A DNA stretch of 64,000 nucleotides from Conexibacter sp. CPCC 205762 (GCF_030646155.1 NZ_JAUTDN010000031.1:1-64000), one strand, 5' to 3'. Shown: positions 3,040 to 43,625, counted from the stretch's first letter. Notes: generated by a model from the sequence alone, not told the origin. Numbers and translations: made by a program.

Positions 3040-3068
3040 TTGACATCTCCACGGGGCGAGAAGATACT
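3040..3068 (+). promoter_or_regulatory. Promoter of the GntR/hyu operon
   Basis: TTGACA (3040-3045), 17-bp spacer, GATACT (3063-3068). Both hexamers are close to the housekeeping consensus. The predicted transcript starts near 3075 and has an untranslated leader of about 160 bases containing a hairpin (CCGGCGCC at 3171-3178 with GGCGCCGG at 3189-3196) whose loop carries the purine run GAGGAGAGA. Confidence 0.65.
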
Positions 3069-3075
3069 CGCCTTC

Positions 3076-3095
3076 GGATCCTGTATCCAGGATCC
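3076..3095. promoter_or_regulatory. Probable GntR operator at the transcription start
   Basis: GGATCCTG, TATC, CAGGATCC: a perfect 8-bp inverted repeat beginning about eight bases after the -10 hexamer. An adjacent half-site-like GGATCCAATATCC follows. Position over +1 to +20 predicts repression by blocking initiation, most simply autoregulation by the FadR-type protein encoded next. Confidence 0.55.
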
Positions 3096-3237: not shown

Positions 3238-3921
3238 GTGACCGAACAGCAGTCGACCGCGATCGCCTGGCGAGGACGGGTGCGGCTCGTGGACGAGGTC
3301 GCGGACGTCATCCGCGAGCGGATCTACGCGGGCACCTACGCGCCCGACGTGCCGCTGCGGCAGGAGCAGCTCGCGGCCGACCTGAACATCTCGCGCACGC
3401 CGCTGCGCGAGGCGCTGCGGATGCTGGAGACGGAGGGCCTCGTCAAGAACGAGCCCGGTCGCGGCGTCCGCGTCGTCTCGGTCGACGCGCCCACGCTGCT
3501 CGCCGGCTACGAGCTGCGCGAGGTGCTCGACGGGCTCGCCGCGCGGCTCTCGGCGCGGCACGCCACGCAGGAGGACCTCGACGTGCTCGAGGGCCACATC
3601 ACGATCCAGCGCTCAGCGCTGGAGCAATCGGACGTCGGCGCCTACACGCGCGCCAACGTCGCCTTCCACGCCGCGATCGTCGCGATCGCCGGCAACGAGT
3701 TCCTCGCGGGCCAGCTCTCATTGATCCCGCTGACGGCCCAGGTCTTCACCCCCGCCCGGCGGATCGAGATGGTGCGCGCACGCGCCTCGGTCACCGAGCA
3801 CGAGCGGATCGTCGCCGCGATCGCGGCGGGCGCGGAAGGAGACGCGGAAGCGGCCGCGCGCGCCCACATCCAGGTGACGATCGACCAGCTCAAGCGCAGC
3901 ATCGCCGACGCCCCCGCCTGA
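3238..3921 (+). CDS. GntR family regulator, FadR/FCD subfamily
   Basis: A 227-residue DNA-binding regulator. The N-terminal winged helix (residues 15-80) includes LRQEQLAADLNISRTPLREA and the wing LVKNEPGRGVRVV. The C-terminal FCD ligand domain carries His144, His188 and His210 at the spacing used for metal binding in this family. The GTG start is supported by AAAGGA seven bases upstream. It heads the hyu operon, 80 bases before hyuA, so it is probably the local sensor of the pathway substrate or an intermediate. A palindrome at its own transcription start suggests autorepression. The effector cannot be read from sequence. Confidence 0.9.
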   Translation: MTEQQSTAIAWRGRVRLVDEVADVIRERIYAGTYAPDVPLRQEQLAADLNISRTPLREALRMLETEGLVKNEPGRGVRVVSVDAPTLLAGYELREVLDGLAARLSARHATQEDLDVLEGHITIQRSALEQSDVGAYTRANVAFHAAIVAIAGNEFLAGQLSLIPLTAQVFTPARRIEMVRARASVTEHERIVAAIAAGAEGDAEAAARAHIQVTIDQLKRSIADAPA

Positions 3922-4001: not shown

Positions 4002-6137
4002 ATGAAAGCCGGTACCCCGACCATGAGCGCCCTCCTCGTCGCCAGCGACATTGGCGGCACTTTCACCGACACGGTCACGATCGACGCCGACGGCGAGATC
4101 GGCCGCTACAAGGCGCCGACCGTCCCCGACGATCCGGCCCAGGGCGTGCTCGCCACGCTCGAGCTGGCGGCGAGCGAGCGCGGTCAGCAGCTCGACGAGC
4201 TGCTGCGGAGCATCACGCTGTTCGCGCACGGCACGACCGTCGCCACGAACGCGATGCTGGAGGGCAAGCGGGCGCCGGTTGGGCTGATCCAGACGCGCGG
4301 CTTCGGCGACACGGTGCCGATCATGCGCGGCTTCAAGTCGCTCGGCCTCGACGAGGACGCGGTCAAGAGCTTCCGCTCGCTGGTCAAGCAGGAGCTGGTC
4401 GTGCCGAAGCGGCTGATCGGCGAGGTGACCGAGCGCGTCGACTACAGAGGCCGCGTGATCACGCCGCTGGACGAGGCGGACGTGCGCGCGACCGTCCGCA
4501 CGCTCAAGCAGCAGGGCGCCGAGACGTTCGCGGTCTCGCTGCTGTGGTCGTTCAAGAACGACAGCCACGAGCGCCGCGTCGCGCAGATCATCGAGGAGGA
4601 GGTCCCGGGCGCGCTGATCAGCCTCTCCTCCTCCCTCCTCCCCCGCCTCGGCGAGTACAAGCGCGCCGTCACGACGACGCTCAACGCGAGCCTGCGCCCC
4701 GTCCTGCGCAGAGCGGTCCGCAGCCTCGACGCGCGCCTGCGCGACGGCGGCCTCGACACCGAGCCGCTGCTGATGCAGTCGGGCGGCGGCCTCACGCCGA
4801 TCTCCGAGATCGACGACCGCGCCGCCGCGACGGTCATGTCGGGCCCCGTCGGCGGCGTCGTCGCCTGCCAGTTCTACGGCGGCCTGCACGAGCAGAAGAA
4901 CATCGTCGCGACCGACATGGGCGGCACCAGCTTCGAGGTCGGCCTGATCCTCGACGGCGAGGCGCACATCGCCAACTCCACCTGGGTCGGCCGCCACGAG
5001 ATCGCGCTGCCGAGCGTGAGCGTCAGAACGGTCGGCGCCGGCTCCGGCTCGATCGCGAGCGTCGTCAACGGCGCGCTGAAGGTCGGCCCCGAGTCGGCCG
5101 GCGCCGTCCCCGGCTCGGCCTGTTACGGCCGCGGCGGCACGCGCCCGACGGTCGCCGACGCCGACGCCGTGCTCGGCTACCTCAACCCCGACAACTTCCT
5201 CGGCGGCCGCCTCACGCTCGACGTCGAGGCCGCGCGCGAGGCGATCCGCATCCACGTCGCCGAGCCGCTGGGCATGAGCGTCGAGGAGGCGGCGGAGGGG
5301 ATCAAGACGATCGTCGACGCGCGCATGGCCGACCTGATCCGCGCCGCGACGATCAAACAGGGCTACGACCCGTCGGACTTCACGCTCTACGCCTACGGCG
5401 GCGCCGGCCCGACGCACGCCGCCTCCTACGGCCGCGAGCTGGGCATCGACGAGGTCGTCGTGCCGCTGACGGCGTCGGTCCACTCGGCCTTCGGCGTCGC
5501 CGCCGCGGACCTGATCCACACCGAGGAGATCTCCGACCCGATCCTCTCGCCCCCGGGCACCAGCGACCACGCCGCGGCGCTCGACCCGGCCGCCGTCGCC
5601 GCCCGCTTCGACCGCCTGACCGAGGCCGTCTACGCGGGCATGGAGCGGGCCGGCGCCAAGCATCGCGACCACGTCCGCCTGACGCGCTCGGTCGAGATGC
5701 GCTTCCGCTTCCAGATCAACGAGCTGACGGTGCCGGTCCCCAGCGGGCCGATCGACGCCGACGCGATCCGCGCGCTCGTGCGCCGCTTCATCGACAGCTA
5801 CGAGGCCCGCTTCGGCGAGGGCTCGGCGTTCGAGGCGGCCGGGATCGAGATGACGACCTTCCGCGTCGTCGGCCGCAGCGCCGCGGCGAGACCGCAGCTG
5901 CGGGCCTTCGAGGGCACCGCCTCCAACGGCGCCGGCCCGCAGTCGAGCAGCCGCAGAGTGTTCGCCCACGGCGAGTGGCAGGACGCGACCGTCCTGCGCC
6001 ACGAGGCGCTCAAGCCCGGCCTGGAGATCGACGGTCTCGCGATCGTCGAGATGAAGGACACGACGATCGTGATCGGCCCCGGCCAGCGCGGCACGGTCGA
6101 CACGCACGGCTCCCTCGTCATCACGCTCGCACGCTGA
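4002..6137 (+). CDS. hyuA: Hydantoinase/oxoprolinase family protein, subunit A (HyuA type)
   Basis: ATP-dependent subunit of the hydantoinase/oxoprolinase and acetone-carboxylase superfamily, which hydrolyses or carboxylates its substrate together with a HyuB partner. The actin-like nucleotide fold begins DIGGTFTDTV (residues 16-25), with LFAHGTTVATNAMLEGK, MSGPVGGVVA and DMGGTSFEVGL further on, then YAYGGAGPTHA. Length (711 aa) is normal. A second start (ATG at 4023, giving MSALLVASDIGG) fits family N-termini equally well, and neither has a clear ribosome site. HyuB follows after 17 bases. The family predicts phosphorylation of a carbonyl or lactam oxygen; the actual substrate is unknown. 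Confidence 0.88.
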   Translation: MKAGTPTMSALLVASDIGGTFTDTVTIDADGEIGRYKAPTVPDDPAQGVLATLELAASERGQQLDELLRSITLFAHGTTVATNAMLEGKRAPVGLIQTRGFGDTVPIMRGFKSLGLDEDAVKSFRSLVKQELVVPKRLIGEVTERVDYRGRVITPLDEADVRATVRTLKQQGAETFAVSLLWSFKNDSHERRVAQIIEEEVPGALISLSSSLLPRLGEYKRAVTTTLNASLRPVLRRAVRSLDARLRDGGLDTEPLLMQSGGGLTPISEIDDRAAATVMSGPVGGVVACQFYGGLHEQKNIVATDMGGTSFEVGLILDGEAHIANSTWVGRHEIALPSVSVRTVGAGSGSIASVVNGALKVGPESAGAVPGSACYGRGGTRPTVADADAVLGYLNPDNFLGGRLTLDVEAAREAIRIHVAEPLGMSVEEAAEGIKTIVDARMADLIRAATIKQGYDPSDFTLYAYGGAGPTHAASYGRELGIDEVVVPLTASVHSAFGVAAADLIHTEEISDPILSPPGTSDHAAALDPAAVAARFDRLTEAVYAGMERAGAKHRDHVRLTRSVEMRFRFQINELTVPVPSGPIDADAIRALVRRFIDSYEARFGEGSAFEAAGIEMTTFRVVGRSAAARPQLRAFEGTASNGAGPQSSSRRVFAHGEWQDATVLRHEALKPGLEIDGLAIVEMKDTTIVIGPGQRGTVDTHGSLVITLAR

Positions 6138-6154
6138 ATCCGGAGATCTGACCC

Positions 6155-8350
6155 ATGAGCTCAATCGAGATCCCCCGCAAGGTCGACCCGATCACCGCCG
6201 AGGTGATCCGCCACCGCCTCTGGTCGATCAACGAGGAGGGCTCGCAGACGATGACGCACGTCTCGGGCTCCCCGGTCGTGCACGCGACCGACTACAACTT
6301 CGGCATCTACGCCGCCGACGGCGAGATGGCCGTGATCGGCGTCTACCTGCTGGTGCCGATCTACACCGGCTACATGGCGATCCAGGAGTTCCTGAACGGC
6401 TTCGACGACATCGCCGAGGGCGACGTCTTCATCGTCAACGACCCCTACAGAGCGGCCGAGCACCAGAACGACGTGCAGTTCTGCGCGCCCTTCTTCCACG
6501 ACGGCGAGCTGATCGCCTGGATCGGCTGCATGGCCCACCAGGTCGACCTCGGCGGCATGGACGCCGGCTCCTGGTGCCCGACCGCGACCGACGTCTTCCA
6601 GGAGGGTCTGATGATCCCCCCGGGCCGGATCGTGCGGAAGGGCCAGGTCAACAGAGAGCTGTGGGACATCGTCGTCGCCAACTCGCGCATGCCCTCGGTC
6701 GTCTCCAACGACTTCACCGCCTTCCTCGCCGGCCTGAAGGTCTCCGGCGAGCGTCTCACCGAGCTGTGCGCCCGCTACGGCGGCGAGACCGTCAAGGCGG
6801 TCATGTCGCAGTCGATCGAGGGCTCTGAGCGAGGCCTGCGCGAGCTGCTGGAGACGCTCCCCGACGGCACCTTCGAGCACACCTCGTACCTCGACCGGCC
6901 CAACACGCAGGGCGGCGACGGCGACGAGCTGGTGACGATCAACTGCAAGCTGACCAAGCGCGGCGACGAGCTGATCTTCGACTACGACGGCTCCGACGAG
7001 CAGTCGCCCGCCTACGGCATGGCGACCCGCGCCGGCACCGTCGGCGCGGTCGCGACGCTGATGCTGTGCCTGTTCGGCTCCGAGCTGCAGTGGAACCACG
7101 GCCTGATGCGGCCGGTCACGGTGAAGGCGCGCGACGGCCTCTGCGTCACCGCGCAGCCGCCGATGCCGGTCTCCGGCGGCGCCGCCGGCGCCAACTGGGT
7201 CGCGATGAACGCGGCCGCCGGCTGCATCGCGAAGATGGTCTCGTTCTCCGACCGCTACAAGGGCCTCGCGTTCGGCCCCGGCGACGGCTCGTGGCAGCTC
7301 GGCCAGTTCGGCGGCCTCAACCAGTACGGCGAGCCGTTCGCGGCGATGTACATGGACTCGCTGCTGTGGGGCGGGCCCGCCTTCGCCGACCGCGACGGCG
7401 TCGACTCCGGCGGCGCGATGGTGATCCTCGGCGGCGGCACGCAGGACGTCGAGCAGCACGAGGTCGGCCAGCCGCTGCTGTACCTGTGGCGGCGCGAGGT
7501 CGCCGACTCCGGCGGCGCCGGCCGCAACCGCGGCGGCAACGGGATCGAGTTCGCGCTCGTCCCCTACGACACCGGCGAGGTCTCGGGCGTGCTCGCCACG
7601 CACGGCACCGCGCTGCCCAACCGCACCGGCATCTTCGGCGGCTACCCGGGCTCGGTCGCCCGCTACGAGGCCGTCAGAGGCGTCGACGCGCTCGCCGAGC
7701 TGAAAGCCGGGCGGGCGATCGTCTCGCTCGAGCAGGCCGGCGGCGAGCACGTGATCCTGCCGGGCGTCACCGCCGGCGCGGTCATCAAGGAGGGCGAGAT
7801 CGTCAACGTCCGCCTGCAGAACGGCGGCGGCTACGGCGACCCGCTCGACCGCGCGCCCGAGCGCGTCCTCGCGGACCTGCTCGACGGCGCCGTCTCGCCC
7901 GCGACCGCGCGCGACGTCTACGGCGTCGTCGCCGACGGCGAGCAGGTCGACGCCGCCGCGACGGAGGCCCGCCGCAGAGAGATCCGCGACGCGCGCCTGG
8001 CGGCGATGGAGCCGCCGAGCGCCGCGTCGGAGGAGGAGGCCGACGCCGCCGAGGGCGTCGGCGAGGTCGCGTGGGGCGACTCGCTCCGCTTCGAGCAGCG
8101 CGACGGCCGCGCGGTCGCCGACTGCGCCCACTGCGGCCACCAGCTCGGCCCGGTCGGCGGCGACTGGCGCAAGCGCGCCGGCCGCGTGACGCTCGGAGCC
8201 GCGCAGGTCAACCCGCTGATCACCGTGCACGAGCAGTTGGTCGTGCACCAGTACGTCTGTCCCTCGTGCGCGGCGTCGTTGTGGGTCGACGTCGAGCCGC
8301 AGGACGGCTCGCTGTGGCAGGACTTCGCTCTGAGAGCAGCCACGGCTTAA
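6155..8350 (+). CDS. hyuB: HyuB-type subunit fused to a Cys4 acetone-carboxylase-gamma-like domain
   Basis: Catalytic partner of HyuA. Residues 1-570 match the HyuB core (VDPITAEVIRHRLWSINEE, VFIVNDPYRAAEHQNDVQF, HQVDLGGMD, RNRGGNG). A charged linker (about 590-640) leads to a C-terminal module with CAHCGHQLGPVGGDWRK at about 657 and CPSCAASLWVD at about 701, two CxxC pairs that could hold zinc. Plain HyuB proteins stop before this. A separate small zinc subunit (gamma) occurs in acetone and acetophenone carboxylases, so the fusion points to a carboxylase-like rather than hydantoinase role. That is inference. GGAG precedes the ATG by nine bases. Confidence 0.85.
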   Translation: MSSIEIPRKVDPITAEVIRHRLWSINEEGSQTMTHVSGSPVVHATDYNFGIYAADGEMAVIGVYLLVPIYTGYMAIQEFLNGFDDIAEGDVFIVNDPYRAAEHQNDVQFCAPFFHDGELIAWIGCMAHQVDLGGMDAGSWCPTATDVFQEGLMIPPGRIVRKGQVNRELWDIVVANSRMPSVVSNDFTAFLAGLKVSGERLTELCARYGGETVKAVMSQSIEGSERGLRELLETLPDGTFEHTSYLDRPNTQGGDGDELVTINCKLTKRGDELIFDYDGSDEQSPAYGMATRAGTVGAVATLMLCLFGSELQWNHGLMRPVTVKARDGLCVTAQPPMPVSGGAAGANWVAMNAAAGCIAKMVSFSDRYKGLAFGPGDGSWQLGQFGGLNQYGEPFAAMYMDSLLWGGPAFADRDGVDSGGAMVILGGGTQDVEQHEVGQPLLYLWRREVADSGGAGRNRGGNGIEFALVPYDTGEVSGVLATHGTALPNRTGIFGGYPGSVARYEAVRGVDALAELKAGRAIVSLEQAGGEHVILPGVTAGAVIKEGEIVNVRLQNGGGYGDPLDRAPERVLADLLDGAVSPATARDVYGVVADGEQVDAAATEARRREIRDARLAAMEPPSAASEEEADAAEGVGEVAWGDSLRFEQRDGRAVADCAHCGHQLGPVGGDWRKRAGRVTLGAAQVNPLITVHEQLVVHQYVCPSCAASLWVDVEPQDGSLWQDFALRAATA

Positions 8351-8357
8351 TTCACGC

Positions 8358-8371
8358 GCCCCGCGAGGGGC
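8358..8371 (+). promoter_or_regulatory. Intercistronic hairpin before the binding-protein gene
   Basis: GCCCC, GCGA, GGGGC: a 5-bp stem closed by a GNRA tetraloop, directly ahead of the very strong AGGAGGAGAG ribosome site. Such elements can stabilise the downstream message and raise binding-protein output relative to the rest of an operon. Confidence 0.4.
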
Positions 8372-8385
8372 TCAGGAGGAGAGAG

Positions 8386-9509
8386 ATGTCACAACGCAGT
8401 GGTGCACTGCTCGCGGCGCTGGCCGCGGGCATGCTCGCCCTTGCCGGTTGCGGCTCCAGCGACGACAACTCGTCGTCGAGCAGCAGCGCCGGCGACAGCG
8501 GCAGCTCGACGAGCGCGAGCAGCAGCGGTGGCGAGAGCAAGAGCGGCGGCGGTCCCTACAAGATCGTCCTCAGCAACAACTACATGGGCAACGAGTGGCG
8601 CCCGCAGATGGTCAACGTCGCGAGATTCGTCGCGGACAGAATGAGCGACAAGGTCGACCTCGACGTGCGCATCTCCGACGCGACGCCGGCCGCGCAGATC
8701 CAGTCGCTGCAGTCGGTGATCCGCCAGAGACCGGACGCGATCATGATCGACGCCGCCTCGCAGACGGCGCTCAACCCGGTGCTGGAGCAGGCCTGCAAGC
8801 AGGGGATCCTCGTCTTCTCCTTCGACCAGGTCGTCTCGGCCGACTGCGCCTACAAGCGGCCGCAGGACTACGAGGCGCAGGCGACCGACGCCGTCAACTG
8901 GCTCGGCACGCAGCTGAGAGGCAGAGGCAAGATCCTGATGGACACCGGCCTCGCGGGCATCCCGCTGTCGGAGACGTACGTCAGAGTCTGGAGACAGGTG
9001 CTCGCGGACAGATACCCGGGCATCGAGGTCGTCGGCACGTTCGAGTCGCAGTACGCGCCGGGCCCGGAGCTGCAGGGCGTCTCCGCCCAGCTCGCGCGCA
9101 ACCCGCAGATCGACGGCATCCTCTCGGGCGCGTACATCGCCTCCGACATCAAGGCGCTGGAGCAGGCCGGCCGGCCGATGGTCCCGATGACGGGCCTCGA
9201 CTTCAACGGCGGCCAGAAGCAGTGCGAGGCGAGAAGACTGAAGTGCTTCTTCATCGGCGCGCCGGCGTTCGTCTCCGGGATGGCGATCGAGCGGATCGTC
9301 AGAGTCCTCGACGGCGGCGAGCAGCCCAGAGACGAGATCTACTGGGACACCAACTACGTCTCCGCCGCCGGTGACATCGACTTCGGCGCGACGCAGAGAG
9401 TCGAGCCGCTGAAGGACGGCGAGAACTACTACGCCGACGGCTCCGACTCGCTCGTGACGCCGATCACGTACGGCGACTGGGACATAACCGCCGAGGACGT
9501 GCTGGCGAA

Positions 9510-9513
<4 letters not shown>
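8386..9513 (+). CDS. Sugar-type ABC transporter substrate-binding lipoprotein
   Basis: A 375-residue exported receptor of the type I periplasmic-binding fold (Peripla_BP_4). The signal peptide ends in the lipobox LALAGC with Cys22 as lipid anchor, followed by a Ser/Gly-rich tether (residues 24-56). The mature domain starts YKIVLSNNYMGNEWRPQMV and has the typical DAIMIDAASQTALNPVLEQA segment. Three Cys residues in the mature part (ACKQ, DCAY, QCEARRLKC) may form disulfides. Placement before a double ATPase and two permeases makes it the importer receptor for the hyu pathway substrate. Thirteen of its 21 Arg codons are AGA, striking in GC-rich DNA. Confidence 0.9.
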
Positions 9514-11020
<1,507 letters not shown>

Positions 11021-11024
<4 letters not shown>

Positions 11025-12010
11025 GCACCGCCTCTCCCCCCTTGGAGCGCGCGCCGCGCGGCGCGCGCCTGTCGCTGCCGCGGATCCCGCTCGGGACCGC
11101 CGCGACCGCGCTGCTGCTGCTCGTGCTGTTCGTCGTCGACCTCAACGTCCAGCCGGGCCTGTGGGACGTCGACCAGCTCGGCATGCTCGTGCAGACCGCG
11201 CTGCCGCTCGTCTTCGTCGCCGCCGCGCAGACGCTCGCGCTGCTGGTGCGCGGGATCGACCTCTCCGTCGGAGGCGTCTTCGCGATCGCGAACACGATGA
11301 CCGCCGTCTGGGTCGGCGCCGACGGCGGCTGGCTGATGCTGATCGCAGTGTTGGCCGTCGGCCTCGCCGCGGGCGCGGTCAACGGCCTGCTGATCTCGTA
11401 CCTGAACTTCCAGCCGTTCATCGCGACGCTCGGCACCTGGACCGCCTACTCCGGCATCGCGCTGATGATCCTGTCGACCGACGGCGGGATGGTCCCGACG
11501 GTGCTGAGCGACATGCTCTACGCGAGCTGGCTCGGGATCCCGTCGTCGTTCTGGATCGTGCTGATCGCCTTCCTGCTGTGGCGGATCCTGCGCGCCAGCC
11601 GCTTCGGCCACCAGCTGCTCGCGGTCGGCGACGACGAGGAGCGCGCGCGCCTCAACGGCACGCCGGTCAGACGCGTGCGGCTGCTCGTCTACGCGCTCGC
11701 CGGCGCCTGCGCCGCGGCCGGCGGGATCATGCTCGCCGGCGTCACCTCGACCGGCTCGCCGACCTCGGGCGACGGCTACATCCTGCTGTCGATCTCCGCC
11801 GTCGTGATCGGCGGCACCAGTCTCGCCGGCGGCAGAGGCGGCTTCGGCCTCTCGCTGATGGGCGTCTTCTCGCTGACGCTGATCAGCGACATCGTCACCG
11901 GCGCCAACCTCGACGTGTGGGTCTCCGTCGCCGCCTCGGCAGTGCTGCTGCTGGTGATGGTGACGATCCGCGCGCTCGCCGACCGCCGCACGGCAAGGAG
12001 CGCAGCATGA
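11021..12010 (+). CDS. Sugar ABC transporter permease 1 (RbsC type)
   Basis: Integral membrane subunit of 329 residues with about nine hydrophobic segments in the BPD_transp_2 layout. The family loop LLVRGIDLSVGGVFAIANTM is near residue 73, and RFGHQLLAVGDDEERARLNG, the ATPase-contact region, near 194. A short basic N-terminal tail precedes the first segment (TAATALLLLVLFVVDL). ATGA overlaps at both ends couple it to the ATPase and to the second permease. Together they form a heterodimeric channel for the operon substrate, which this sequence does not identify. Confidence 0.9.
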
Positions 12011-13017
12011 GCCGCCTGCGCGGACACGTCTCCGTCTCGACCGCATCGGCCTTCGGGCTGTGCGCGGTCCTGTTCCTGATCGCGACGATCCACTCGTCCG
12101 GCTTCGCCAGCGGCGGCAACGTCCGCCAGCTGCTCGTCTTCTCCGCCTTCATCGGCTTCGCCGCGCTCGGCCAGACGGTCGTCGTGCTCAGCGGCGGGCT
12201 CGACCTGTCGGTGCCGTGGCTGATGGCCTTCGGCGGGATCCAGCTGTCGCACTGGGCCGGCGACGGGATGCCGGGCGGGGTCGCGATCGCGCTGGTCGTG
12301 CTGGCCGGCGCGGCGATCGGCCTCGTCAACGGCGTCGGCGTCGCCTGGCTGCGGCTGCCGCCGATCATCATGACGCTCGCGATGGGCGGCCTCGTGCAGG
12401 CCTACCTGCTGTCGCTCGGCGTGCTCAACACGGGCGGCTCGGGCGTCCCCCACGCCGCCGAGGCGGCCGCCTCGGACCGGATCGGGCCGATACCGGTCGT
12501 CGCGCTGGTGTGGCTCGTCGTCGCGATCGGGATCGGGATCGTGCTGGCGCGCAGCGCCGCCGGCCGCCGCGTCTACGCGGTCGGCGCCAACGACGAGGTC
12601 GCGCGCCTCTCCGGCATCGACGTCGGCCGCGTGCGGCTGGCGGCCTACGCCCTGTCGGGCGCATCGGCGGCCTTCGCCGGCGTCATCCTGGCGGGATACG
12701 TCGGCTCGACCTACCTCGACATCGGCGCCCCGTACCTGTTCGCCTCGATCGCCGCCGTGATCGTCGGCGGCGCGTCGATCATGGGCGGACGGGGCACCTA
12801 CTGGGGGACGGTCGCGGGCGCTCTCACGCTCACCGTCCTGTCCGCCATGCTGCCCCTCTTCCACCTGAGCGACGCCGGCCTGAAGGTCGTCTACGGCGTC
12901 GTGATCCTGGCCGGCGTCTGGCTCTCGCAGTCGGGCGGCGCGCTCGTCGCGCGGCTGCGCCAGCGCTCCTCCTCTCCCACCCCCGCATCGCCTGAGGTGA
13001 AGTCCGTTGAACCCTGA
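12007..13017 (+). CDS. Sugar ABC transporter permease 2 (RbsC type)
   Basis: Second membrane subunit, 336 residues, paralogous to its upstream neighbour. The conserved loop reads VVLSGGLDLSVPWLMAFGGI, and the ATPase-contact region reads GRRVYAVGANDEVARLSGID. Start ATG 12007 overlaps the preceding stop as ATGA. The tail past LSQSGGALVARLRQ is polar and short. Its last codons contain GAGGTGAAG, which acts as the ribosome site for the overlapping dehydrogenase gene, so expression of transporter and enzyme is linked. Confidence 0.9.
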   Translation: MSRLRGHVSVSTASAFGLCAVLFLIATIHSSGFASGGNVRQLLVFSAFIGFAALGQTVVVLSGGLDLSVPWLMAFGGIQLSHWAGDGMPGGVAIALVVLAGAAIGLVNGVGVAWLRLPPIIMTLAMGGLVQAYLLSLGVLNTGGSGVPHAAEAAASDRIGPIPVVALVWLVVAIGIGIVLARSAAGRRVYAVGANDEVARLSGIDVGRVRLAAYALSGASAAFAGVILAGYVGSTYLDIGAPYLFASIAAVIVGGASIMGGRGTYWGTVAGALTLTVLSAMLPLFHLSDAGLKVVYGVVILAGVWLSQSGGALVARLRQRSSSPTPASPEVKSVEP

Positions 13018-13807
13018 CACCGTCTCCCCCGCCGCGCGGCCCGTGCCGCGCGGCGTCCCCGGCCGCCTCGACGGCCGCGTCGCGATCGTCACCGGCGCCG
13101 GCTCCGGCATCGGCCGCGCGACCGCGCTGCGGCTCGCCGCCGAGGGCGCCTCCGTCGTCGCCTCCGACCTGTCCGCCGACGCCGCCGCCGAGACGGCCGC
13201 GCTGATCGGCGACAGCGCGCTCTCGTGCCAGGCCGACGTGACCGACGGCGAGGCCGTCGAGCGGCTGGTCGCGACGACCGTCGCGACCTTCGGCGGCGTC
13301 GACGTCTTTCACAACAACGCCGGGATGGCGCAGGCGGCCAAGCCGCTCGGCGACGTCGCGCGCGCCGAGTGGGATCGCCTGATCGCGGTCAATCTGACGG
13401 CCTTCTTCGTCGGCGCCCAGGCGGTCGCGCCGGCGATGCGGGCGCGCGGCGGCGGCTCGATCGTCGTCACCGCGTCGACCTCCGCCGTCCACCCGCGCGC
13501 CGGGCTGAGCGCCTACGCGGCGGCGAAGAGCGGGGTGCTCGGGCTCACGCGCGCGCTGGCGCTGGAGCTGGCGGCCGACCAGATCCGCGTCAACGCGATC
13601 AACCCGGTCGCGGTCAGAACGCCGATGCTGAGCGAGTTCAGACTCGCGGCCGACGAGGAGCTGTTCGACAAGCTCGCGACGACGATCCCGCTCGGGACGG
13701 CGATCGACGCCGAGGACGTCGCGGCCGCGGTCGCCTACCTCGCCTCCGACGACGCCCGCTACGTGACCGGGATCGCTTTGAACGTCGACGGCGGGCGGGA
13801 CCTGTGA
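13007..13807 (+). CDS. Short-chain dehydrogenase/reductase, FabG type
   Basis: NAD(P)-dependent alcohol or ketone oxidoreductase of 266 residues. The Rossmann motif TGAGSGIGRA follows RVAIVTG near residue 25, NNAG is near 105, and the catalytic Tyr/Lys pair is in SAYAAAKSG near 170 with the upstream Ser in TASTS. The acidic residue after beta-2 (ASDLSAD) favours NAD. The TTG start overlaps the permease gene by 11 bases and has the strong GAGGTGAAG site. In this operon it is a good candidate for oxidising an alcohol to the aldehyde or ketone used by the next enzyme. Substrate unknown. Confidence 0.88.
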   Translation: MNPDTVSPAARPVPRGVPGRLDGRVAIVTGAGSGIGRATALRLAAEGASVVASDLSADAAAETAALIGDSALSCQADVTDGEAVERLVATTVATFGGVDVFHNNAGMAQAAKPLGDVARAEWDRLIAVNLTAFFVGAQAVAPAMRARGGGSIVVTASTSAVHPRAGLSAYAAAKSGVLGLTRALALELAADQIRVNAINPVAVRTPMLSEFRLAADEELFDKLATTIPLGTAIDAEDVAAAVAYLASDDARYVTGIALNVDGGRDL

Positions 13808-15195
13808 GCGCCCTGTCGGAGCAGTTCGACGTCGTCGACCCGGCCACGCGGCAGCCGTTCGCGTCGTTGAAGGAGTTCACCGCCGCCGAGGTCGACGCGG
13901 TCGTGCGGGCCGCGTGGGAGGCGCAGCGCTCCTCCGCCGACTGGCGCGTGCCGGTCAAGCGCGGGTCGGCGCTGCTGCGCCTGGCGCGGCTGATCGAGCG
14001 CGACGGCGAGCGGCTCGCGCAGCTGGAGATGCGCGACACCGGCAAGCCGCTCGCGCAGGCGCGCGGCGACGTCGCCGTGACCGTCCGCTACCTGGAGTTC
14101 TACGCCGGCGCGGCCGACAAGCTCGAAGGCCGGCAGATCCCGCTCGGGCCGGACACGATCGACTACACCGTGCGCGAGCCGTGGGGCGTCTGCGGCCAGG
14201 TGATCCCCTGGAACTATCCGCTGCAGATGATCACGCGCGTCGCCGCACCGGCGCTGGCGGTCGGCAACGCGGTCGTCGTCAAGCCGTCCGAGCTGGCGTC
14301 GCAGACGCCGCTGGAGTGGGCGCGGCTGGCGGTCGAAGCGGGCGTGCCCGAAGGCATGGTCGGGATCGTCACCGGGCACGGCGCCGCCGGGGCCGCGGTC
14401 GTCGAGCACCCGCTGGTGTCGCACGTGACCTTCGTCGGCTCGGCCGCGACCGGCTCGCGCGTCGCGCACGCCTGCGCCGACCGGCTCGTGCCGGTCGAGC
14501 TGGAGCTGGGCGGCAAGTCGCCGAACGTCGTCTTCGCCGACGCCGACCTCGACAGAGCGGTGCCGGCGATCGTGAAGTCGCTGATCCAGAACGCCGGGCA
14601 GTCGTGCTCGGCCGGCTCGCGGCTGCTCGTGCACGCTTCCATCGCCGACGAGCTGGTCGAGCGGGTGGGCGATGCGATGCGCGCCCTGCGGATCGGGCCG
14701 GGTGCTGACGATCCCGACCTCGGCCCGCTGGTCGCCGAGCGCCAGCTCGACAACGCGCTGCGGATGCTCGACACGGCGCGCTCCGAGGGCGCCTCGGTGG
14801 TGAGCGGCGGGGCGCGGCCGGCCGGCTTCGAGGACGGCTGGTACCTCGAGCCGACGCTCGTGACCGGCGTCGCGCCGGGGATGGAGCTGTTCCGCGAGGA
14901 GGTCTTCGGGCCGGTGCTGGCGACGACCGTCTTCGAGTCCGACGAGGAGGCGATCGCTTTGGCGAACGACTCGCCGTACGGCCTCGTCGCCGGCGTCTGG
15001 ACGCGCGACCTCTCGCGCGCCCACCGCGTCGCGGGCGCCGTCCAGGCCGGGCAGGTGTTCGTCAACTCCTACGGCGTCGCCGGCGGCGTCGAGATCCCGT
15101 TCGGCGGCATGAAGCGTTCCGGCTACGGACGCGGCAAGGGGATGGACGCGATGTACGCGTACACCCAGGTCAAGAACGTGTGCATCGCGCTCTGA
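13804..15195 (+). CDS. NAD-dependent aldehyde dehydrogenase
   Basis: Oxidises an aldehyde to the acid. The 463-residue protein has the NAD-binding IPWNYPLQMI near residue 138, the general-base Glu in LELGGKSPNVVF and the catalytic Cys in QNAGQSCSAGSRLL. EVFGPVLATTVF and the C-terminal PFGGMKRSGYGRGKG are standard. GTGA overlap with the SDR gene couples the two, which suits an alcohol-aldehyde-acid sequence. Resembles betaine-aldehyde and gamma-aminobutyraldehyde type dehydrogenases, but family membership does not fix the substrate. Confidence 0.9.
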   Translation: MSALSEQFDVVDPATRQPFASLKEFTAAEVDAVVRAAWEAQRSSADWRVPVKRGSALLRLARLIERDGERLAQLEMRDTGKPLAQARGDVAVTVRYLEFYAGAADKLEGRQIPLGPDTIDYTVREPWGVCGQVIPWNYPLQMITRVAAPALAVGNAVVVKPSELASQTPLEWARLAVEAGVPEGMVGIVTGHGAAGAAVVEHPLVSHVTFVGSAATGSRVAHACADRLVPVELELGGKSPNVVFADADLDRAVPAIVKSLIQNAGQSCSAGSRLLVHASIADELVERVGDAMRALRIGPGADDPDLGPLVAERQLDNALRMLDTARSEGASVVSGGARPAGFEDGWYLEPTLVTGVAPGMELFREEVFGPVLATTVFESDEEAIALANDSPYGLVAGVWTRDLSRAHRVAGAVQAGQVFVNSYGVAGGVEIPFGGMKRSGYGRGKGMDAMYAYTQVKNVCIAL

Positions 15196-15213
15196 GATGG
15201 GCTGGAGGCTGTG

Positions 15214-16290
15214 ATGGAGGCAGGTAGAACGCTGCGCGTCGCGGTGATCCGCGGCGACGGCATCGGCCCGGAGGTCGTCGCGGCGGCGCTGCCGGCGATC
15301 TGCGACGCGGCCGCGCACGACGGCGTCGCGGTCGTCTGCGAGGAGCTGGACTGGGGCGGCGAGCGGCTGCTGCGGACCGGCGCCGCGATGCCGCCGGACG
15401 CGCTGGACCTCGTCCGCGCCCACGACGCGATCCTGTTCGGCGCGATCGGCCACCCGCAGATCGACCCGGCCGAGTCGGTCTGGTCGCTGGTGCTGCCGCT
15501 GCGCAAGGGGCTGGAGCTGTACGCCAACCTGCGCCCGGTCGTCGGCTGGGACGGGCTCTGGTCGCCGGCGCGCGAGGGTGTCGAGGTCGACTTCCTCGTC
15601 GTGCGCGAGAACACCGAGGGCGAGTACAGCGGGATCGGCGGCCGCGCCCACGCCGGCACGCCGCTGGAGGTCGCGACCGAGGTCGCCGTCCACTCGCGGC
15701 CTGCGATCGAGCGGATCGCGCGCTGCGCGTTCCTGCATGCGCGCGAGCGGGGCCAGCTGCTGACGCTGGCGACGAAGTCGAACGTCAACCGCCATGGCTA
15801 CGGCCTCTGGGACGAGGTCGTCTTCGAGCTGGGCGCGCGCGAGTTCCCGGACGTGGCGCTGGAGAAGAACTACGTCGACGCGCTGGCGACGCGGATGGTC
15901 GCGCGGCCGGAGTCGCTCGGCGTCGTGCTGGCCGGCAACCTCTTCGGCGACATCCTCTCCGACCTCGGCGCCCCCTTTGCCGGCGGGCTCGGGATGGTGC
16001 CGTCGGCCAACGTCGCCCCGGGCCTCGACGTGCCGGGCTTCTTCGAGCCGGTCCACGGCTCCGCGCCCGACATCGCCGGCAAGGGCGTCGCCAACCCGTT
16101 GGCGACGGTGCTGAGCGGCGCGATGCTGCTGCGCGAGAACGGCTGCCCCGCCGGCGCCGGCGCGCTGGAGACGGCCGTCGCCGCGGCGATCCGCGACGGC
16201 GCCGTCACCGCCGACCTCGGCGGCCGCGCCACCACCGCTGAGGCCGGCGAGGCCGTCCGCGCCGCCCTCCCCGCCGCCGTCACCCCCTGA
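15214..16290 (+). CDS. Isopropylmalate/tartrate/D-malate dehydrogenase family enzyme
   Basis: A 358-residue beta-decarboxylating dehydrogenase. [14 protein letters not shown] opens the fold; [13 protein letters not shown], the motif that separates tartrate/D-malate (TtuC/DmlA) enzymes from IPM and isocitrate dehydrogenases, is near residue 130. [16 protein letters not shown] supplies the catalytic Lys region and [13 protein letters not shown] the metal Asp residues. The ATG at 15214 is preferred to GTG 15211 because GGAGG lies five bases before it. Last gene of the hyu operon, ended by a 19-bp hairpin. It probably converts a 2-hydroxy acid made by the upstream enzymes, inferred from position. 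Confidence 0.82.
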
Positions 16291-16301: not shown

Positions 16302-16344
16302 CCCCGGTCGTTTGCTGTCGATAGACGACAGCAAACGACCGGGG
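16302..16344. terminator. 19-bp perfect hairpin at a convergent junction
   Basis: Arms CCCCGGTCGTTTGCTGTCG and its exact complement enclose ATAGA. It lies 11 bases after the stop of the dehydrogenase and 14 before the stop of the opposing small gene, so it can serve both transcripts. There is no T-run on either side. Confidence 0.7.
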
Positions 16345-37816: not shown

Positions 37817-39202
37817 TCACTGGACGACCCGCGGCGGGTCGCCGGCGCCGACCGCGTCCTCGCCGCCGACCGCGTTGGCGGCGATCACGCGGCTGAACCA
37901 CTTCGCGCTCGCCTTCGGGATCCGCTCCTGCGTGCGGTAGTCGACGTAGACGAGGCCGAACCGCTTCGAGTAGCCGAGCGCCCACTCGAAGTTGTCCATC
38001 AGCGACCAGACGAAGTAGCCGCGCACGTCGGCGCCCTGCTCGATCGCCTGCGCGGTCGCGCGGAAGTGGCCGTCGAGGAAGGCGATCCGCTCGACGTCGT
38101 CGACCTCGCCCTCGGGGTCGACGTAGTCGGCGAAGGCGGCGCCGTTCTCGGTCACGTACAGCGGCAGGTCGGTGTAGTCGGTCGCGACCCGCACCAGCAC
38201 CTCGCGCAGCCCGTCGGGGTGGATGCCGATCTCGCCGTCGGTCAGCGGGCCGGCGTCGGGCTCCTTGACCCAGCCGCGCGGGTCGTCCGCCGACGGCGAG
38301 ACGAAGTGGCGCTCGTAGAAGTTGACGCCGAGGTAGTCGAGCGGCTGCCCGATCGCGGCGAGGTCGCCCTCCTGCACGAACTCCATCGCGGTCGCGACGC
38401 TCTGCAGCTCGACCATGTCCTGCGGGTAGGCGCCCTTGAAGAGCGGGTCGAGGAACCAGCGGTTCTCGCGCCCGTCGACCCGCCGCGCGGCCTCCAGCGC
38501 CGCCGGGTCGTCGCTCGACGGCCACGCCGACGAGAGGTTGAGCGTGATCCCGACCTGGCCGCTGACGCCCGCCCCGCGCAGCGCGGAGACCGCCCGCCCG
38601 TGGCCGAGCAGCAGGTGGTGGGAGGCGGCGACGCCCGCCGCCAGGCTCTGCACGCCCGGCGCGTGGCGCCCCTCCATGTAGCCGAGGAACGACGAGCAGT
38701 ACGGCTCGTTCAGCGTCACCCAGAACGGCACGTCGTCCTTGAAGACGCGCGCGATCTGCTCGCTGTACTCGCCGAACCGCTCCGCGGTCGAGCGGACGGC
38801 CCAGCCGCCCTCCTCCTGCAGGTCCTGCGGCAGGTCCCAGTGGTAGAGCGTCACCATCGGCGTGACGCCGCGCTGCTGCAGCCCGTCGAGCAGCCGCTTG
38901 TAGTGGTCGACGACGTGCTGGACGAGCGGACCGCGGCCGTTGGGCTGGATCCGCGGCCAGGCGAACGACAGCCGGTAGCCGCCGAGCCCGAGCGAGGCGA
39001 CGAGGTCGAGGTCCTGCTCCCAGCGGTGGTAGTGGTCGCAGGCGATGTCGCCGGTGTCGCCGTGATGGACCTTGCCCGGCGTGCGGGCGAAGACGTCCCA
39101 GATCGACGGCGTGCGGCCGCCCTCCTGCGCGGCCCCTTCGATCTGGTAGGCCGCGGTCGCGGCGCCCCACAGGAAGCCGTCCGGGAAGTTGACAGTGCTC
39201 AT
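37817..39202 (-). CDS. bglA: Family GH1 beta-glucosidase
   Basis: 461-residue cytosolic glycosidase without a signal peptide. FPDGFLWGAATAAYQIEGA opens the TIM barrel. The acid/base Glu is in TLNEPYCSSFLGYMEGRHAPG and the nucleophile in YVTENGAAFADY; FVWSLMDNFEWALGYSKRFG and YVDYRTQERIPKASAKWFS complete the GH1 pattern. It follows the permease gene by 14 bases on the same transcript and would split imported beta-glucosides such as gentiobiose or cellobiose. Linkage specificity cannot be read from sequence. Confidence 0.93.
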   Translation of the reverse strand: MSTVNFPDGFLWGAATAAYQIEGAAQEGGRTPSIWDVFARTPGKVHHGDTGDIACDHYHRWEQDLDLVASLGLGGYRLSFAWPRIQPNGRGPLVQHVVDHYKRLLDGLQQRGVTPMVTLYHWDLPQDLQEEGGWAVRSTAERFGEYSEQIARVFKDDVPFWVTLNEPYCSSFLGYMEGRHAPGVQSLAAGVAASHHLLLGHGRAVSALRGAGVSGQVGITLNLSSAWPSSDDPAALEAARRVDGRENRWFLDPLFKGAYPQDMVELQSVATAMEFVQEGDLAAIGQPLDYLGVNFYERHFVSPSADDPRGWVKEPDAGPLTDGEIGIHPDGLREVLVRVATDYTDLPLYVTENGAAFADYVDPEGEVDDVERIAFLDGHFRATAQAIEQGADVRGYFVWSLMDNFEWALGYSKRFGLVYVDYRTQERIPKASAKWFSRVIAANAVGGEDAVGAGDPPRVVQ

Positions 39203-39216
39203 GTCCTGGTTTTCTC

Positions 39217-40425
39217 CTACGCGCCCCGCGCGGCGCGCCGGCGCCGGCTGATCGCATCGATGCTCACAGCCGCCACGAGAATCGCTCCCGTGGCGATGTC
39301 CTTCGTGCTCGACGGCTTGCCGAGCAGGTCGAGTCCGTTCTCCACGCTCGCGATCACGAGCGCGCCGAGCAGCGCCTGGTAGACGCGCCCCTGGCCGCCG
39401 AAGAGGCTGGCGCCGCCGATCACCGCGGCCGCGATCGCCTCCAGCAGCAGCGTGCCGCCGCCGGTCCCGGTCGAGACCGCGAACTGGCGCGAGACGGCGA
39501 TCAGGCCCGCGACGGCCGCGAGGCCCGCGGCGAGCGCGAACACCAGCACGCGGATCTGGTCGACGCGCACGCCCGCGCGCCGCGCCGCCTCTCTGTCGCC
39601 GCCGATCGCGAACAGGTGACGGCCGAGCTGGGTGCGGGTCGTCAGCGCGCCGAGCGCGACCGAGATCCCGATCAGCACGACGAGCAGCCACGGCACGCCG
39701 AAGTAGCCGTCGAGGTAGGCGACGACGAGCGCGCCGAAGGCCGCCGGCGCCAGACAGGCGGCGACGTCGTGCGACAGCGGGCGCGTCGTCAGCGACAGCC
39801 GCGTGCGCGCGCGGCGCCGCAGCGCGACGTCGGCCCACCAGCCCGCGACGGCGACGACCAGCAGCAGCCAGGCGAGCCAGCTCGGCAGGTAGCTGTTGGC
39901 GATCCCGCGCACGAACTCGTCCTCGACGCGCAGCTCGCCGGCGTTGCCGAGCAGCGTCAGCTGGACGCCCTGCCAGGCGAGGAAGCCGCCGAGCGTGACG
40001 ACGAACGACGGCACGCCGACCAGCACCGAGATGCCGCCCTGCAGCAGCCCGGCGGCGGCGCCGACCGCGATCGCGAAGGCGATCGCCGCCCACGTCGGCC
40101 AGCCGTGGTTGGTCAGCAGCACCGCCACGACCGCCGCGCACATGCCGGCGAGCGTGCCGAGCGAGAGGTCGATCTCGCCGATCAGCAGCACCAGCACGAC
40201 GCCGAGCGACAGCATCCCCACGACCCCGACCTGGAGGACGAGGTTGGAGAGGTTGCGCGCGGTCAGGAAGTTCTCGTTCAGCAGCTGGAAGACGAGCCAG
40301 ATCAGCGCCAGGCCGATCAGGACCGGGACCGGCCCCCAGTCGGCGTCGCGCGCCGCGCCGAGGCGGGCCGCCAGACCGAGGCGGGCGCCGTCGCGTCCCG
40401 GGGCGTCTGCCCTCACGGCGCTCAT
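39217..40425 (-). CDS. Sugar ABC transporter permease, XylH type
   Basis: 402 residues, larger than RbsC because it carries extra segments, as in XylH. The loop LVLLIGEIDLSLGTLAGMCA is near residue 80, and GRHLFAIGGDREAARRAGVRV near 300 is the ATPase contact. The N-terminal 28 residues are polar and Ala/Arg-rich. ATGA overlap with the ATPase. The only permease of this importer, so it should act as a homodimer. Confidence 0.9.
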   Translation of the reverse strand: MSAVRADAPGRDGARLGLAARLGAARDADWGPVPVLIGLALIWLVFQLLNENFLTARNLSNLVLQVGVVGMLSLGVVLVLLIGEIDLSLGTLAGMCAAVVAVLLTNHGWPTWAAIAFAIAVGAAAGLLQGGISVLVGVPSFVVTLGGFLAWQGVQLTLLGNAGELRVEDEFVRGIANSYLPSWLAWLLLVVAVAGWWADVALRRRARTRLSLTTRPLSHDVAACLAPAAFGALVVAYLDGYFGVPWLLVVLIGISVALGALTTRTQLGRHLFAIGGDREAARRAGVRVDQIRVLVFALAAGLAAVAGLIAVSRQFAVSTGTGGGTLLLEAIAAAVIGGASLFGGQGRVYQALLGALVIASVENGLDLLGKPSSTKDIATGAILVAAVSIDAISRRRRAARGA

Positions 40426-41207
40426 GATGCCTTCGCCCCGGACAGCAGCCGCCCGCCGGTGATCGCCGCGACGACGTCGTCGGGCTCGCTCTCGGCGCGC
40501 ACGAACGTGCCGGCGTTTCTGCCCAGCCGCAGGACCGCGATCCGGTCGGCGACGCGGAAGACGTCGGAGAGGTTGTGCGAGATCACGATCACGCCCAGCC
40601 CGCGCTCGGCGAGCGACCGCACGAGCCCGAGCACCATGTCGGTCTGCTCGACGCCGAGCGCGGCGGTCGGCTCGTCGAGCAGCACGAGCTTGGAGCCCCA
40701 CAGCACCGCGCGCGCGACCGCGACCGCCTGCCGCTGGCCGCCCGACAGCCCCGACACGGGGCGCCGGACGTCGCGCAGCGTCGTCACCGACAGCTCCGCC
40801 AGCACCTCGCGCGTGCGCTGCTCCATCGCCGCGTTGGAGAGCCGCCGCAGCCGCCCGGCCAGCGGCGCCTTGACCTGCTCGCGGCCGAGGAAGAGGTTGG
40901 CGACGACGTCGAGGTTGTCGCAGATCGCGAGGTCCTGGTAGACGGTCGCGATCCCCAGCTCGGCGGCGGCCTGAGGCCCGCTGACGCGGACCTCGTCGCC
41001 TTCGAACAGGATCCGGCCCTCGTCGGCCGTGTGGGCGCCGGCGATCGTCTTCACGAGCGTCGACTTGCCGGCGCCGTTGTCACCGACGAGGGCGAGCACC
41101 TCGCCCCGCCGGACCTCCAGGTCGACGCCGTTCAACGCGTGAACGGCGCCGTAGGACTTGCGGATCCCCTCCAGTCTCAGGAGGGGCGCTGAATTCACTG
41201 CGGGCAT
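40422..41207 (-). CDS. Sugar ABC transporter ATPase, single domain
   Basis: 261 residues: Walker A GDNGAGKST (42-50), Q-loop YQDLAICDNL, signature LSGGQRQAVAVARAV, Walker B LVLLDEPTAALG, switch VIVISHNLSDV. XylG and RbsA have two such domains; here one full-strength domain must dimerise, as in the short FrcA-like subgroup. The ATG is placed 13 bases inside the receptor gene. Works with the XylH-type permease. Confidence 0.9.
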   Translation of the reverse strand: MPAVNSAPLLRLEGIRKSYGAVHALNGVDLEVRRGEVLALVGDNGAGKSTLVKTIAGAHTADEGRILFEGDEVRVSGPQAAAELGIATVYQDLAICDNLDVVANLFLGREQVKAPLAGRLRRLSNAAMEQRTREVLAELSVTTLRDVRRPVSGLSGGQRQAVAVARAVLWGSKLVLLDEPTAALGVEQTDMVLGLVRSLAERGLGVIVISHNLSDVFRVADRIAVLRLGRNAGTFVRAESEPDDVVAAITGGRLLSGAKAS

Positions 41208-42337: not shown

Positions 42338-42385
42338 CGTGCGTCCTCTCCTCCGTGGGTGTGTCTGGGGGTGCTGCGGGGTGCG

Positions 42386-43615: not shown

Positions 43616-43625
43616 CCTCCTGCGC

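What the first reader, a model, noticed from the sequence alone, without database searches (positions are those of the whole stretch)
4002..16290. HyuA/HyuB operon with a Cys4 domain fused to HyuB and a full uptake and oxidation route
The C-terminal CxxC pairs of HyuB resemble the zinc-binding small subunit of acetone-type carboxylases. Combined with a sugar-type importer, SDR, aldehyde dehydrogenase and a decarboxylating dehydrogenase in one GntR-controlled transcript, this looks like an uncharacterised route for a carbonyl or cyclic amide compound. The transporter class suggests a polyol- or sugar-like ring.
Basis: partly seen in the sequence, partly recalled or inferred. Interest (0 to 1): 0.7.

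Follow-up and report, generated by a model that had tools for sequence, protein, structure and literature searches.

The report
HyuB enzyme with fused zinc domain
A soil actinobacterium carries a one-transcript catabolic operon whose ATP-dependent HyuA/HyuB enzyme has the zinc-binding small subunit of ketone carboxylases fused to its tail; comparison with relatives suggests that the operon breaks an amide-type bond and turns the product into a branched 2-oxo acid, possibly the route that degrades vitamin B5, whose enzymes have long lacked genes.

Summary
GntR-HyuA-HyuB-ABC importer-SDR-ALDH-decarboxylating dehydrogenase form one unit with a promoter, an operator and an end hairpin. HyuB residues 638-731 are homologous to the gamma subunit of acetone/acetophenone carboxylases: profile searches (E 4e-9; hhalign E 1e-9), four aligned cysteines, and a fold search whose five best hits among 350,542 PDB chains are all gamma subunits. 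Fused HyuB-gamma proteins form a broad, undescribed assemblage between the known carboxylases and hydantoinases. "Carboxylase" does not follow. In a Patulibacter genome with no HyuA at all, an M20 deacylase with a peptide importer takes the place of HyuAB in front of the same GntR, SDR, ALDH and dehydrogenase, under the same operator, which occurs exactly once in each of four genomes. This points to amide hydrolysis. 2-oxoacid dehydrogenase genes lie beside the module in five genomes, isobutyryl-CoA mutase in one. SDR, ALDH and a beta-decarboxylating dehydrogenase are the enzyme classes of pantoate catabolism (to 3,3-dimethylmalate, then 2-oxoisovalerate). Best reading: a pantothenate/pantoyl-compound route (about 0.4); rival: ketone carboxylase (0.2). 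The sugar-ring inference is not supported: the importer type varies and also sits with unrelated HyuB-gamma pathways.

The parts
3040..3068 (+). promoter TTGACA-17-GATACT
   Evidence: scan, 10 of 12 matches, none in 50 shuffles; same layout upstream of the Patulibacter medicamentivorans and G415 modules
3076..3095 (.). operator GGATCCTGTATCCAGGATCC; core ATCCTGGATACA (3082-3093, minus strand)
   Evidence: core occurs once in each of four whole genomes, always at this module; one window match of the 11-base core against 0.06 expected
3238..3921 (+). GntR/FCD regulator
   Evidence: PF00392, PF07729; 63-75% identity in Patulibacter modules
4002..6137 (+). HyuA, ATP-binding subunit (likely start 4023)
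   Evidence: PF05378, PF01968, PF19278; ATP motifs at residues 16, 305, 368; 5l9w_B, 7hk5 and 6yra_A about equally close
6155..8350 (+). HyuB with fused gamma domain
   Evidence: PF02538 over residues 11-563; metal tetrad D46-H103-D106-H128, invariant in six orthologues
8066..8347 (+). gamma-like Cys4 domain, HyuB residues 638-731
   Evidence: profile E 4.4e-9 to 5l9w_C; hhalign 9.9e-10; Foldseek top five all gamma subunits
8386..9513 (+). lipoprotein substrate-binding protein, Peripla_BP_4
   Evidence: PF13407
9510..11024 (+). ABC ATPase, double domain, CUT2 type
   Evidence: PF00005 twice; best model AraG, below its cut-off
11021..12010 (+). ABC permease 1
   Evidence: PF02653
12007..13017 (+). 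ABC permease 2
   Evidence: PF02653
13007..13807 (+). SDR dehydrogenase; predicted alcohol to aldehyde step
   Evidence: PF13561; NF005559 above cut-off; TGxxxGxG and YxxxK
13804..15195 (+). aldehyde dehydrogenase
   Evidence: PF00171, E 4.6e-157; active-site GQSC
15211..16290 (+). beta-decarboxylating 2-hydroxyacid dehydrogenase (tartrate/D-malate/isopropylmalate type)
   Evidence: PF00180; closest PDB 3flk, 246 bits; tree
16302..16344 (.). hairpin after the last gene, probable transcript end
   Evidence: -44.1 kcal/mol, z -7.34; no T-run follows

Best explanation
The operon is a self-contained catabolic route. HyuA and HyuB-gamma form an ATP-dependent hydrolase that phosphorylates an amide-type carbonyl and cleaves the C-N bond at the HyuB metal site; the fused zinc domain is probably structural, a built-in version of the gamma subunit that wraps HyuB. 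The released 2-hydroxy acid with a terminal CH2OH, most likely D-pantoate from pantothenate or another pantoyl compound, is oxidised by the SDR to the aldehyde and by the ALDH to 3,3-dimethylmalate, then oxidatively decarboxylated by the last enzyme to 2-oxoisovalerate, which feeds a 2-oxoacid dehydrogenase (isobutyryl-CoA). GntR represses the unit at one operator. Shown here: gene content, gamma homology, conserved module, unique operator, replacement of HyuAB by M20, linked 2-oxoacid dehydrogenase genes. Inferred: hydrolysis, repression, order of steps, the pantoyl substrate.
For: Module conserved in Patulibacter, other Actinomycetota and a Bacillota MAG. Genome G463 has no HyuA homologue at E<=0.001, yet keeps GntR-SDR-ALDH-dehydrogenase (63-81% identical) behind a peptide importer and an M20 deacylase, under the same operator, unique in four genomes. 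M20 orthologues are absent from the five HyuAB-only genomes searched, so the two are alternatives, not successive steps. 2-oxoacid dehydrogenase genes border the module in G463 (both sides), G464, G468, L051 and G523; IcmF follows the last gene in G523. Relatives of the last enzyme also sit with gamma-less, hydrolase-type HyuAB plus ALDH. No transaminase, CoA ligase or thiolase in the operon. Pantothenase is a known activity without a known gene (PMC10393543).
Against: Known HyuAB hydrolases in the literature read act on cyclic amides; a linear amide such as pantothenate would be new. Gamma is described as absent from Hyd hydrolases. A sister HyuB-gamma subfamily has a member beside an acetoacetyl-CoA ligase and thiolases, a carboxylase-like setting. 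The E1 genes cannot be told apart as pyruvate or branched-chain type. The window has no E1/E2 next to its operon. IcmF was seen once. Nothing in the operon disposes of beta-alanine.
Confidence: 0.4

Rival explanations
1. HyuA/HyuB-gamma is a ketone carboxylase: the SDR oxidises a secondary alcohol to a ketone and HyuAB-gamma adds bicarbonate with ATP to give a beta-keto acid that ALDH and the decarboxylating dehydrogenase process further.
For: The gamma domain is the mark of Acx and Apc. Sister-subfamily locus L116 has HyuA-HyuB-gamma followed by an acetoacetyl-CoA ligase above its cut-off (758 against 521 bits) and thiolases; the acetone carboxylase operon L135 has a similar ligase-like gene downstream (read by eye). 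The window clade and that subfamily share a node with 100% SH-aLRT.
Against: No CoA ligase or thiolase in this operon; an M20 hydrolase takes the place of HyuAB in G463; HyuB has Asp46 where Xanthobacter acetone carboxylase has the gating Glu89; no alpha-prime or epsilon subunit gene.
Confidence: 0.2
2. Same hydrolase-SDR-ALDH-dehydrogenase logic, but for another amide or lactam that yields a different hydroxy acid, ending in a different malate derivative and a different 2-oxo acid.
For: Enzyme classes fit any 3-substituted malate; HyuAB-ALDH-Iso_dh sets recur with other importers; the dehydrogenases of G523 and L051 are non-orthologous to the window's.
Against: Linked 2-oxoacid dehydrogenase genes in five genomes and IcmF favour a branched product.
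Confidence: 0.27
3. Catabolism of an imported sugar, polyol or sugar acid through tartrate, as the importer and the 'tartrate dehydrogenase' label suggest.
For: CUT2-type importer; best NCBIfam model of the last enzyme is tartrate dehydrogenase.
Against: Score below that model's cut-off (349 against 470 bits); a Paracoccus plasmid tartrate dehydrogenase sits with glycerate kinase, pyruvate kinase and enolase, none of which is here; the importer type is interchangeable.
Confidence: 0.08

Closest known systems
Acetone carboxylase AcxABC (5m45, 5svb; Xanthobacter)
   Same: HyuA and HyuB homology; Cys4 gamma fold
   Different: gamma is a separate gene; HyuB groups elsewhere in the tree; Glu89 gating residue is Asp46 here; no downstream CoA ligase
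Acetophenone carboxylase ApcABCDE (5l9w; Aromatoleum)
   Same: HyuA closest to its gamma-named ATPase subunit by bits, nearly tied with others; gamma-subunit fold; gamma lies against the C-terminal arm of the HyuB homologue, which fits the site of fusion
   Different: no alpha-prime and no epsilon subunit; gamma fused
Caprolactamase CapAB (6yra; Pseudomonas jessenii)
   Same: two-gene HyuAB layout, Asp-His-Asp-His metal site, best NCBIfam model for both subunits
   Different: no gamma domain; only 543 and 208 bits against a cut-off of 1000; no transaminase here, which a lactam route would need
Hydantoinase HyuAB with HyuC
   Same: two-gene HyuAB layout
   Different: no gamma in HyuB; the M20 enzymes in Patulibacter modules stand in place of HyuAB, not after it
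Pantothenate/pantoate degradation of Pseudomonas (EC 3.5.1.22, 1.1.1.106, 1.2.1.33, 1.1.1.84)
   Same: three dehydrogenase classes with the right chemistry; 2-oxoisovalerate product fits the linked E1/E2 and IcmF genes
   Different: the entry enzyme would be ATP-dependent here; no gene of the classical route could be compared; pathway details rest on my own knowledge

Membership tests
Hydantoinase/oxoprolinase-ketone carboxylase superfamily | HyuA and HyuB Pfam domains | tested here: met
Hydantoinase/oxoprolinase-ketone carboxylase superfamily | ASKHA ATP motifs in HyuA; Asp-His-Asp-His metal site in HyuB | tested here: met
   compared
Acetone carboxylase gamma (PF08882) | sequence passes the Pfam cut-off | tested here: not met
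   no hit at E<0.1; the paralogue fused to HyuB on contig 35 of the same genome passes
Acetone carboxylase gamma (PF08882) | homology and fold of the Cys4 subunit | tested here: met
Acetone carboxylase gamma (PF08882) | four zinc-ligand cysteines | tested here: met
Acetone carboxylase (Acx) | separate acxC gene downstream of acxAB | tested here: not met
   gamma is fused to HyuB
Acetone carboxylase (Acx) | HyuB-type subunit groups with Acx | tested here: not met
   tree
Acetone carboxylase (Acx) | carboxylates ketones with ATP | not testable with these tools
   needs an assay
Acetophenone carboxylase (Apc) | second ATPase subunit alpha-prime (and epsilon) in the cluster | tested here: not met
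   one HyuA only in the operon
Hydantoinase (Hyd) branch | two subunits without gamma | tested here: not met
   gamma domain present
Hydantoinase (Hyd) branch | ATP-dependent hydrolysis of an amide | not testable with these tools
   supported indirectly by replacement with M20
Pantoate catabolic pathway | alcohol, aldehyde and beta-decarboxylating dehydrogenases together | tested here: met
Pantoate catabolic pathway | 2-oxoisovalerate formed | tested here: inconclusive
   2-oxoacid dehydrogenase and IcmF linkage in relatives; none beside the window operon
Pantoate catabolic pathway | D-pantoate is the substrate | not testable with these tools
   needs an assay

The most novel reading that the evidence does not exclude
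Probability: 0.33. Interest if true: 0.82.

Novelty: new variant of a known kind. Interest (0 to 1): 0.62.

Why it matters
The published scheme sorts this enzyme family into Hyd (AB), Acx (ABC) and Apc (ABCDE) by whether a separate gamma subunit exists; a large set of proteins with gamma fused to HyuB fits none of them, so gamma alone may no longer predict carboxylation. If the pantoyl reading is right, the operon gives sequences to activities measured in the 1960s and 1970s that lack genes and makes vitamin B5 breakdown testable. Even if the substrate differs, the unique operator and the M20-for-HyuAB swap give a direct way to find it.

Tried and rejected
Single-sequence searches of the tail (Pfam, PDB) found nothing. 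A profile of only the eight close orthologues also failed against PDB; adding four distant fusions was needed, so the PDB result rests on that wider set, and hhalign and Foldseek, which use only orthologues on the query side, were the cross-checks. AlphaFold2 of whole HyuB was poor (pLDDT 49) and was not used; the tail alone reached 85. My first extraction of gamma sequences was wrong for minus-strand hits and was redone. The idea that M20 acts after HyuAB, as HyuC does, was dropped because HyuAB-only genomes lack M20 orthologues. A drug-degradation link through P. medicamentivorans was looked for in papers and not pursued. Plasmid relatives are all below 60% identity. Paper searches found no gene for pantothenase or for the pantoate dehydrogenases, and no description of a HyuB-gamma fusion; most subscription papers are not covered. 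The substrate-pocket region of the last dehydrogenase did not separate tartrate from alkyl-malate enzymes by eye.

Full report
WHAT IS THERE. The window operon was rebuilt from ORFs and translations and domain searches: GntR/FCD, HyuA, HyuB, a lipoprotein binding protein of the Peripla_BP_4 type, an ATPase with two ABC domains, two permeases, an SDR, an aldehyde dehydrogenase and a beta-decarboxylating dehydrogenase of PF00180. Gaps between the structural genes run from -11 to 35 bp, with 80 bp between GntR and HyuA. A promoter TTGACA-17-GATACT at 3040-3068 has no counterpart in 50 shuffles. A hairpin with 19-bp arms follows the last gene. HyuA keeps the three ATP motifs and HyuB the metal tetrad D46-H103-D106-H128; published mutagenesis in caprolactamase targeted the equivalent metal positions.

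THE TAIL. HyuB residues 638-731 carry C657, C660, C702 and C705. Pfam and phmmer miss the domain, but a profile built from twelve fused tails ranks the gamma subunits of acetophenone and acetone carboxylase first among 177,635 distinct PDB sequences (E 4.4e-9, 2.3e-8, 2.5e-8). hhalign of the eight orthologous tails against canonical gamma subunits taken from genomes gives probability 96.5, E 9.9e-10, over nearly the whole domain. The predicted tail structure (pLDDT 85) has five best Foldseek matches in 350,542 chains, all gamma subunits, TM-score 0.58-0.65 on the query. In the acetophenone carboxylase structure gamma lies on the HyuB homologue and is held by its extended C-terminal arm, and its zinc site is far from the active site, so a fusion at this place is structurally sensible and the zinc is probably structural. 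A sister subfamily (L108, L085, L086, L117) keeps the domain but has lost all four cysteines.

A BRANCH OF ITS OWN. The same genome has nine HyuB genes, at least three more of them with such a tail (contigs 35, 67, 60). In the order, 29 of 232 genomes have a HyuB match at E<=1e-100, most matches running into the tail. A tree of 82 HyuB cores (quick method) puts Acx and Apc on one side and gamma-less Hyd, with caprolactamase, on another; the fused forms lie between in several supported clades. In acetone carboxylase itself one fusion arose apparently separately (L134, 943 aa). Weidenweber et al. (PMC5214803) describe three branches, Hyd AB, Acx ABC and Apc ABCDE, with gamma absent from Hyd; the fused set is not in that scheme, and a paper search for such a fusion found none.

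THE MODULE. Seven relatives of HyuB with 64-81% identity were found in the collection of 84,980 genomes. The whole set GntR-HyuA-HyuB-importer-SDR-ALDH-dehydrogenase is in P. medicamentivorans I11 (71-84% identity) and L048; the set without a GntR match is in the Bacillota MAG L049; and L051 has it rearranged with a 38% identical SDR. G468 lacks this importer and has a peptide importer and an M20 deacylase upstream instead. L046 has HyuA-HyuB-SDR only; L050 has HyuAB only. In L051 and G523 the PF00180 enzyme is not orthologous to that of the window; that of L051 groups with mycobacterial LeuB. The same reaction class thus seems to have been recruited more than once.

THE NATURAL EXPERIMENT. 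G463, a Patulibacter relative of 93% completeness, has no HyuA homologue at E<=0.001. It keeps GntR (63%), SDR (81%), ALDH (80%) and the dehydrogenase (79%) behind a peptide-type importer and an M20 enzyme. The 12-mer ATCCTGGATACA occurs exactly once in each of G000, G463, G464 and G468, always at the start of this unit; in the window its 11-base core is expected 0.06 times with one mismatch allowed and is found once, exactly. The M20 enzyme has no orthologue (best about 32% identity, or no match) in the HyuAB-only genomes G000, G464, G415, G408 and G525. HyuAB-gamma and M20 therefore look like alternative entries to one pathway, and M20 enzymes are amide hydrolases (established knowledge of the family). 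A different M20 pair, 57% identical to each other, lies near the module in G478 and G523. This is the main reason for preferring hydrolysis to carboxylation. Gamma-less HyuAB also stands beside relatives of the last dehydrogenase, with ALDH (L167, L168, L171, L172) or without it (L169).

THE PRODUCT. Genes of 2-oxoacid dehydrogenase complexes flank the module in G463 (E1alpha-E1beta-E2 on both sides), G464, G468 and L051, and E1alpha lies directly upstream of HyuA in the Bacillota MAG G523. In G523 the gene after the last dehydrogenase is the fused isobutyryl-CoA mutase IcmF (819 bits on the partial sequence first scanned; full ORF 1118 aa). The genes of G463 and G523 were recognised by eye; those of G464, L051 and the E1alpha of G468 by search. 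E1alpha of G468 scores 148 bits to a bacterial pyruvate dehydrogenase and 138 bits to human branched-chain dehydrogenase, so the type is open. Three of the five genomes are one genus, so the independent cases are three. A primary-alcohol dehydrogenase, an aldehyde dehydrogenase and a beta-decarboxylating dehydrogenase that feed a 2-oxoacid dehydrogenase match the textbook fate of D-pantoate: 4-dehydropantoate, 3,3-dimethylmalate, 2-oxoisovalerate (from my own knowledge of EC 1.1.1.106, 1.2.1.33, 1.1.1.84). The amide bond to be cut would be that of pantothenate or a related pantoyl amide, which also explains why no transaminase is present. A 2023 paper states that the protein behind pantothenase is unknown (PMC10393543); no paper found names these genes. 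This identification is an inference.

THE IMPORTER. CUT2-type transport genes also stand with HyuB-gamma in the paralogous contig-67 operon, which encodes a LigB-type extradiol dioxygenase, a meta-cleavage hydrolase, a 2-oxopent-4-enoate hydratase and an acetylating acetaldehyde dehydrogenase, and in L118, L123 and L124. The importer class therefore does not imply a sugar.

CAVEATS. The sister-subfamily member next to an acetoacetyl-CoA ligase and thiolases (L116) keeps the carboxylase reading alive. HyuAB enzymes known from the papers read act on ring amides. The window itself has no E1/E2 next to its operon. All functions are predictions.

Noticed in passing
L053 (G000 contig 67, 8000-27900): Paralogous operon of the same genome: IclR, HyuA, HyuB-gamma, CUT2 importer, dienelactone-type and meta-cleavage hydrolases, LigB dioxygenase, hydratase, acetaldehyde dehydrogenase. 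A similar set (HyuA, HyuB-gamma, hydrolases, LigB) is on a Niveispirillum plasmid (L125).
   Followed up: partly
L116 (G373 contig 62), 2561-13347: HyuA-HyuB-gamma followed by acetoacetyl-CoA ligase, thiolases and another CoA ligase: a probable ketone carboxylase operon of the fused type, with no cysteine pairs in its gamma domain.
   Followed up: partly
L134 (G165), 4972-7803: Acetone carboxylase large subunit fused to its gamma subunit in one 943-aa ORF, an apparently independent fusion.
   Followed up: no
L113 / L047 (Candidatus Solirubrobacter pratensis): About 40 residues of HyuA joined in frame to HyuB from residue 85: a large in-frame deletion or an assembly error; GntR, SDR and ALDH are intact.
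   Followed up: no
L050 (Enemella evansiae), 9956-12165: HyuB split into two ORFs (485 and 251 aa) by an apparent frameshift; the module partners are absent.
   Followed up: no
window 37817-45434: A separate set of a glycoside hydrolase-like gene, a CUT2-type importer, a ROK-type repressor and a further large secreted-enzyme-like gene, a more plausible sugar system, unrelated to the operon; read by eye only.
   Followed up: no
L167, L169 (G370, G218): Gamma-less HyuA-HyuB with an importer, an M24-like peptidase, in one case ALDH, and a PF00180 dehydrogenase: another uncharacterised HyuAB route.
   Followed up: no
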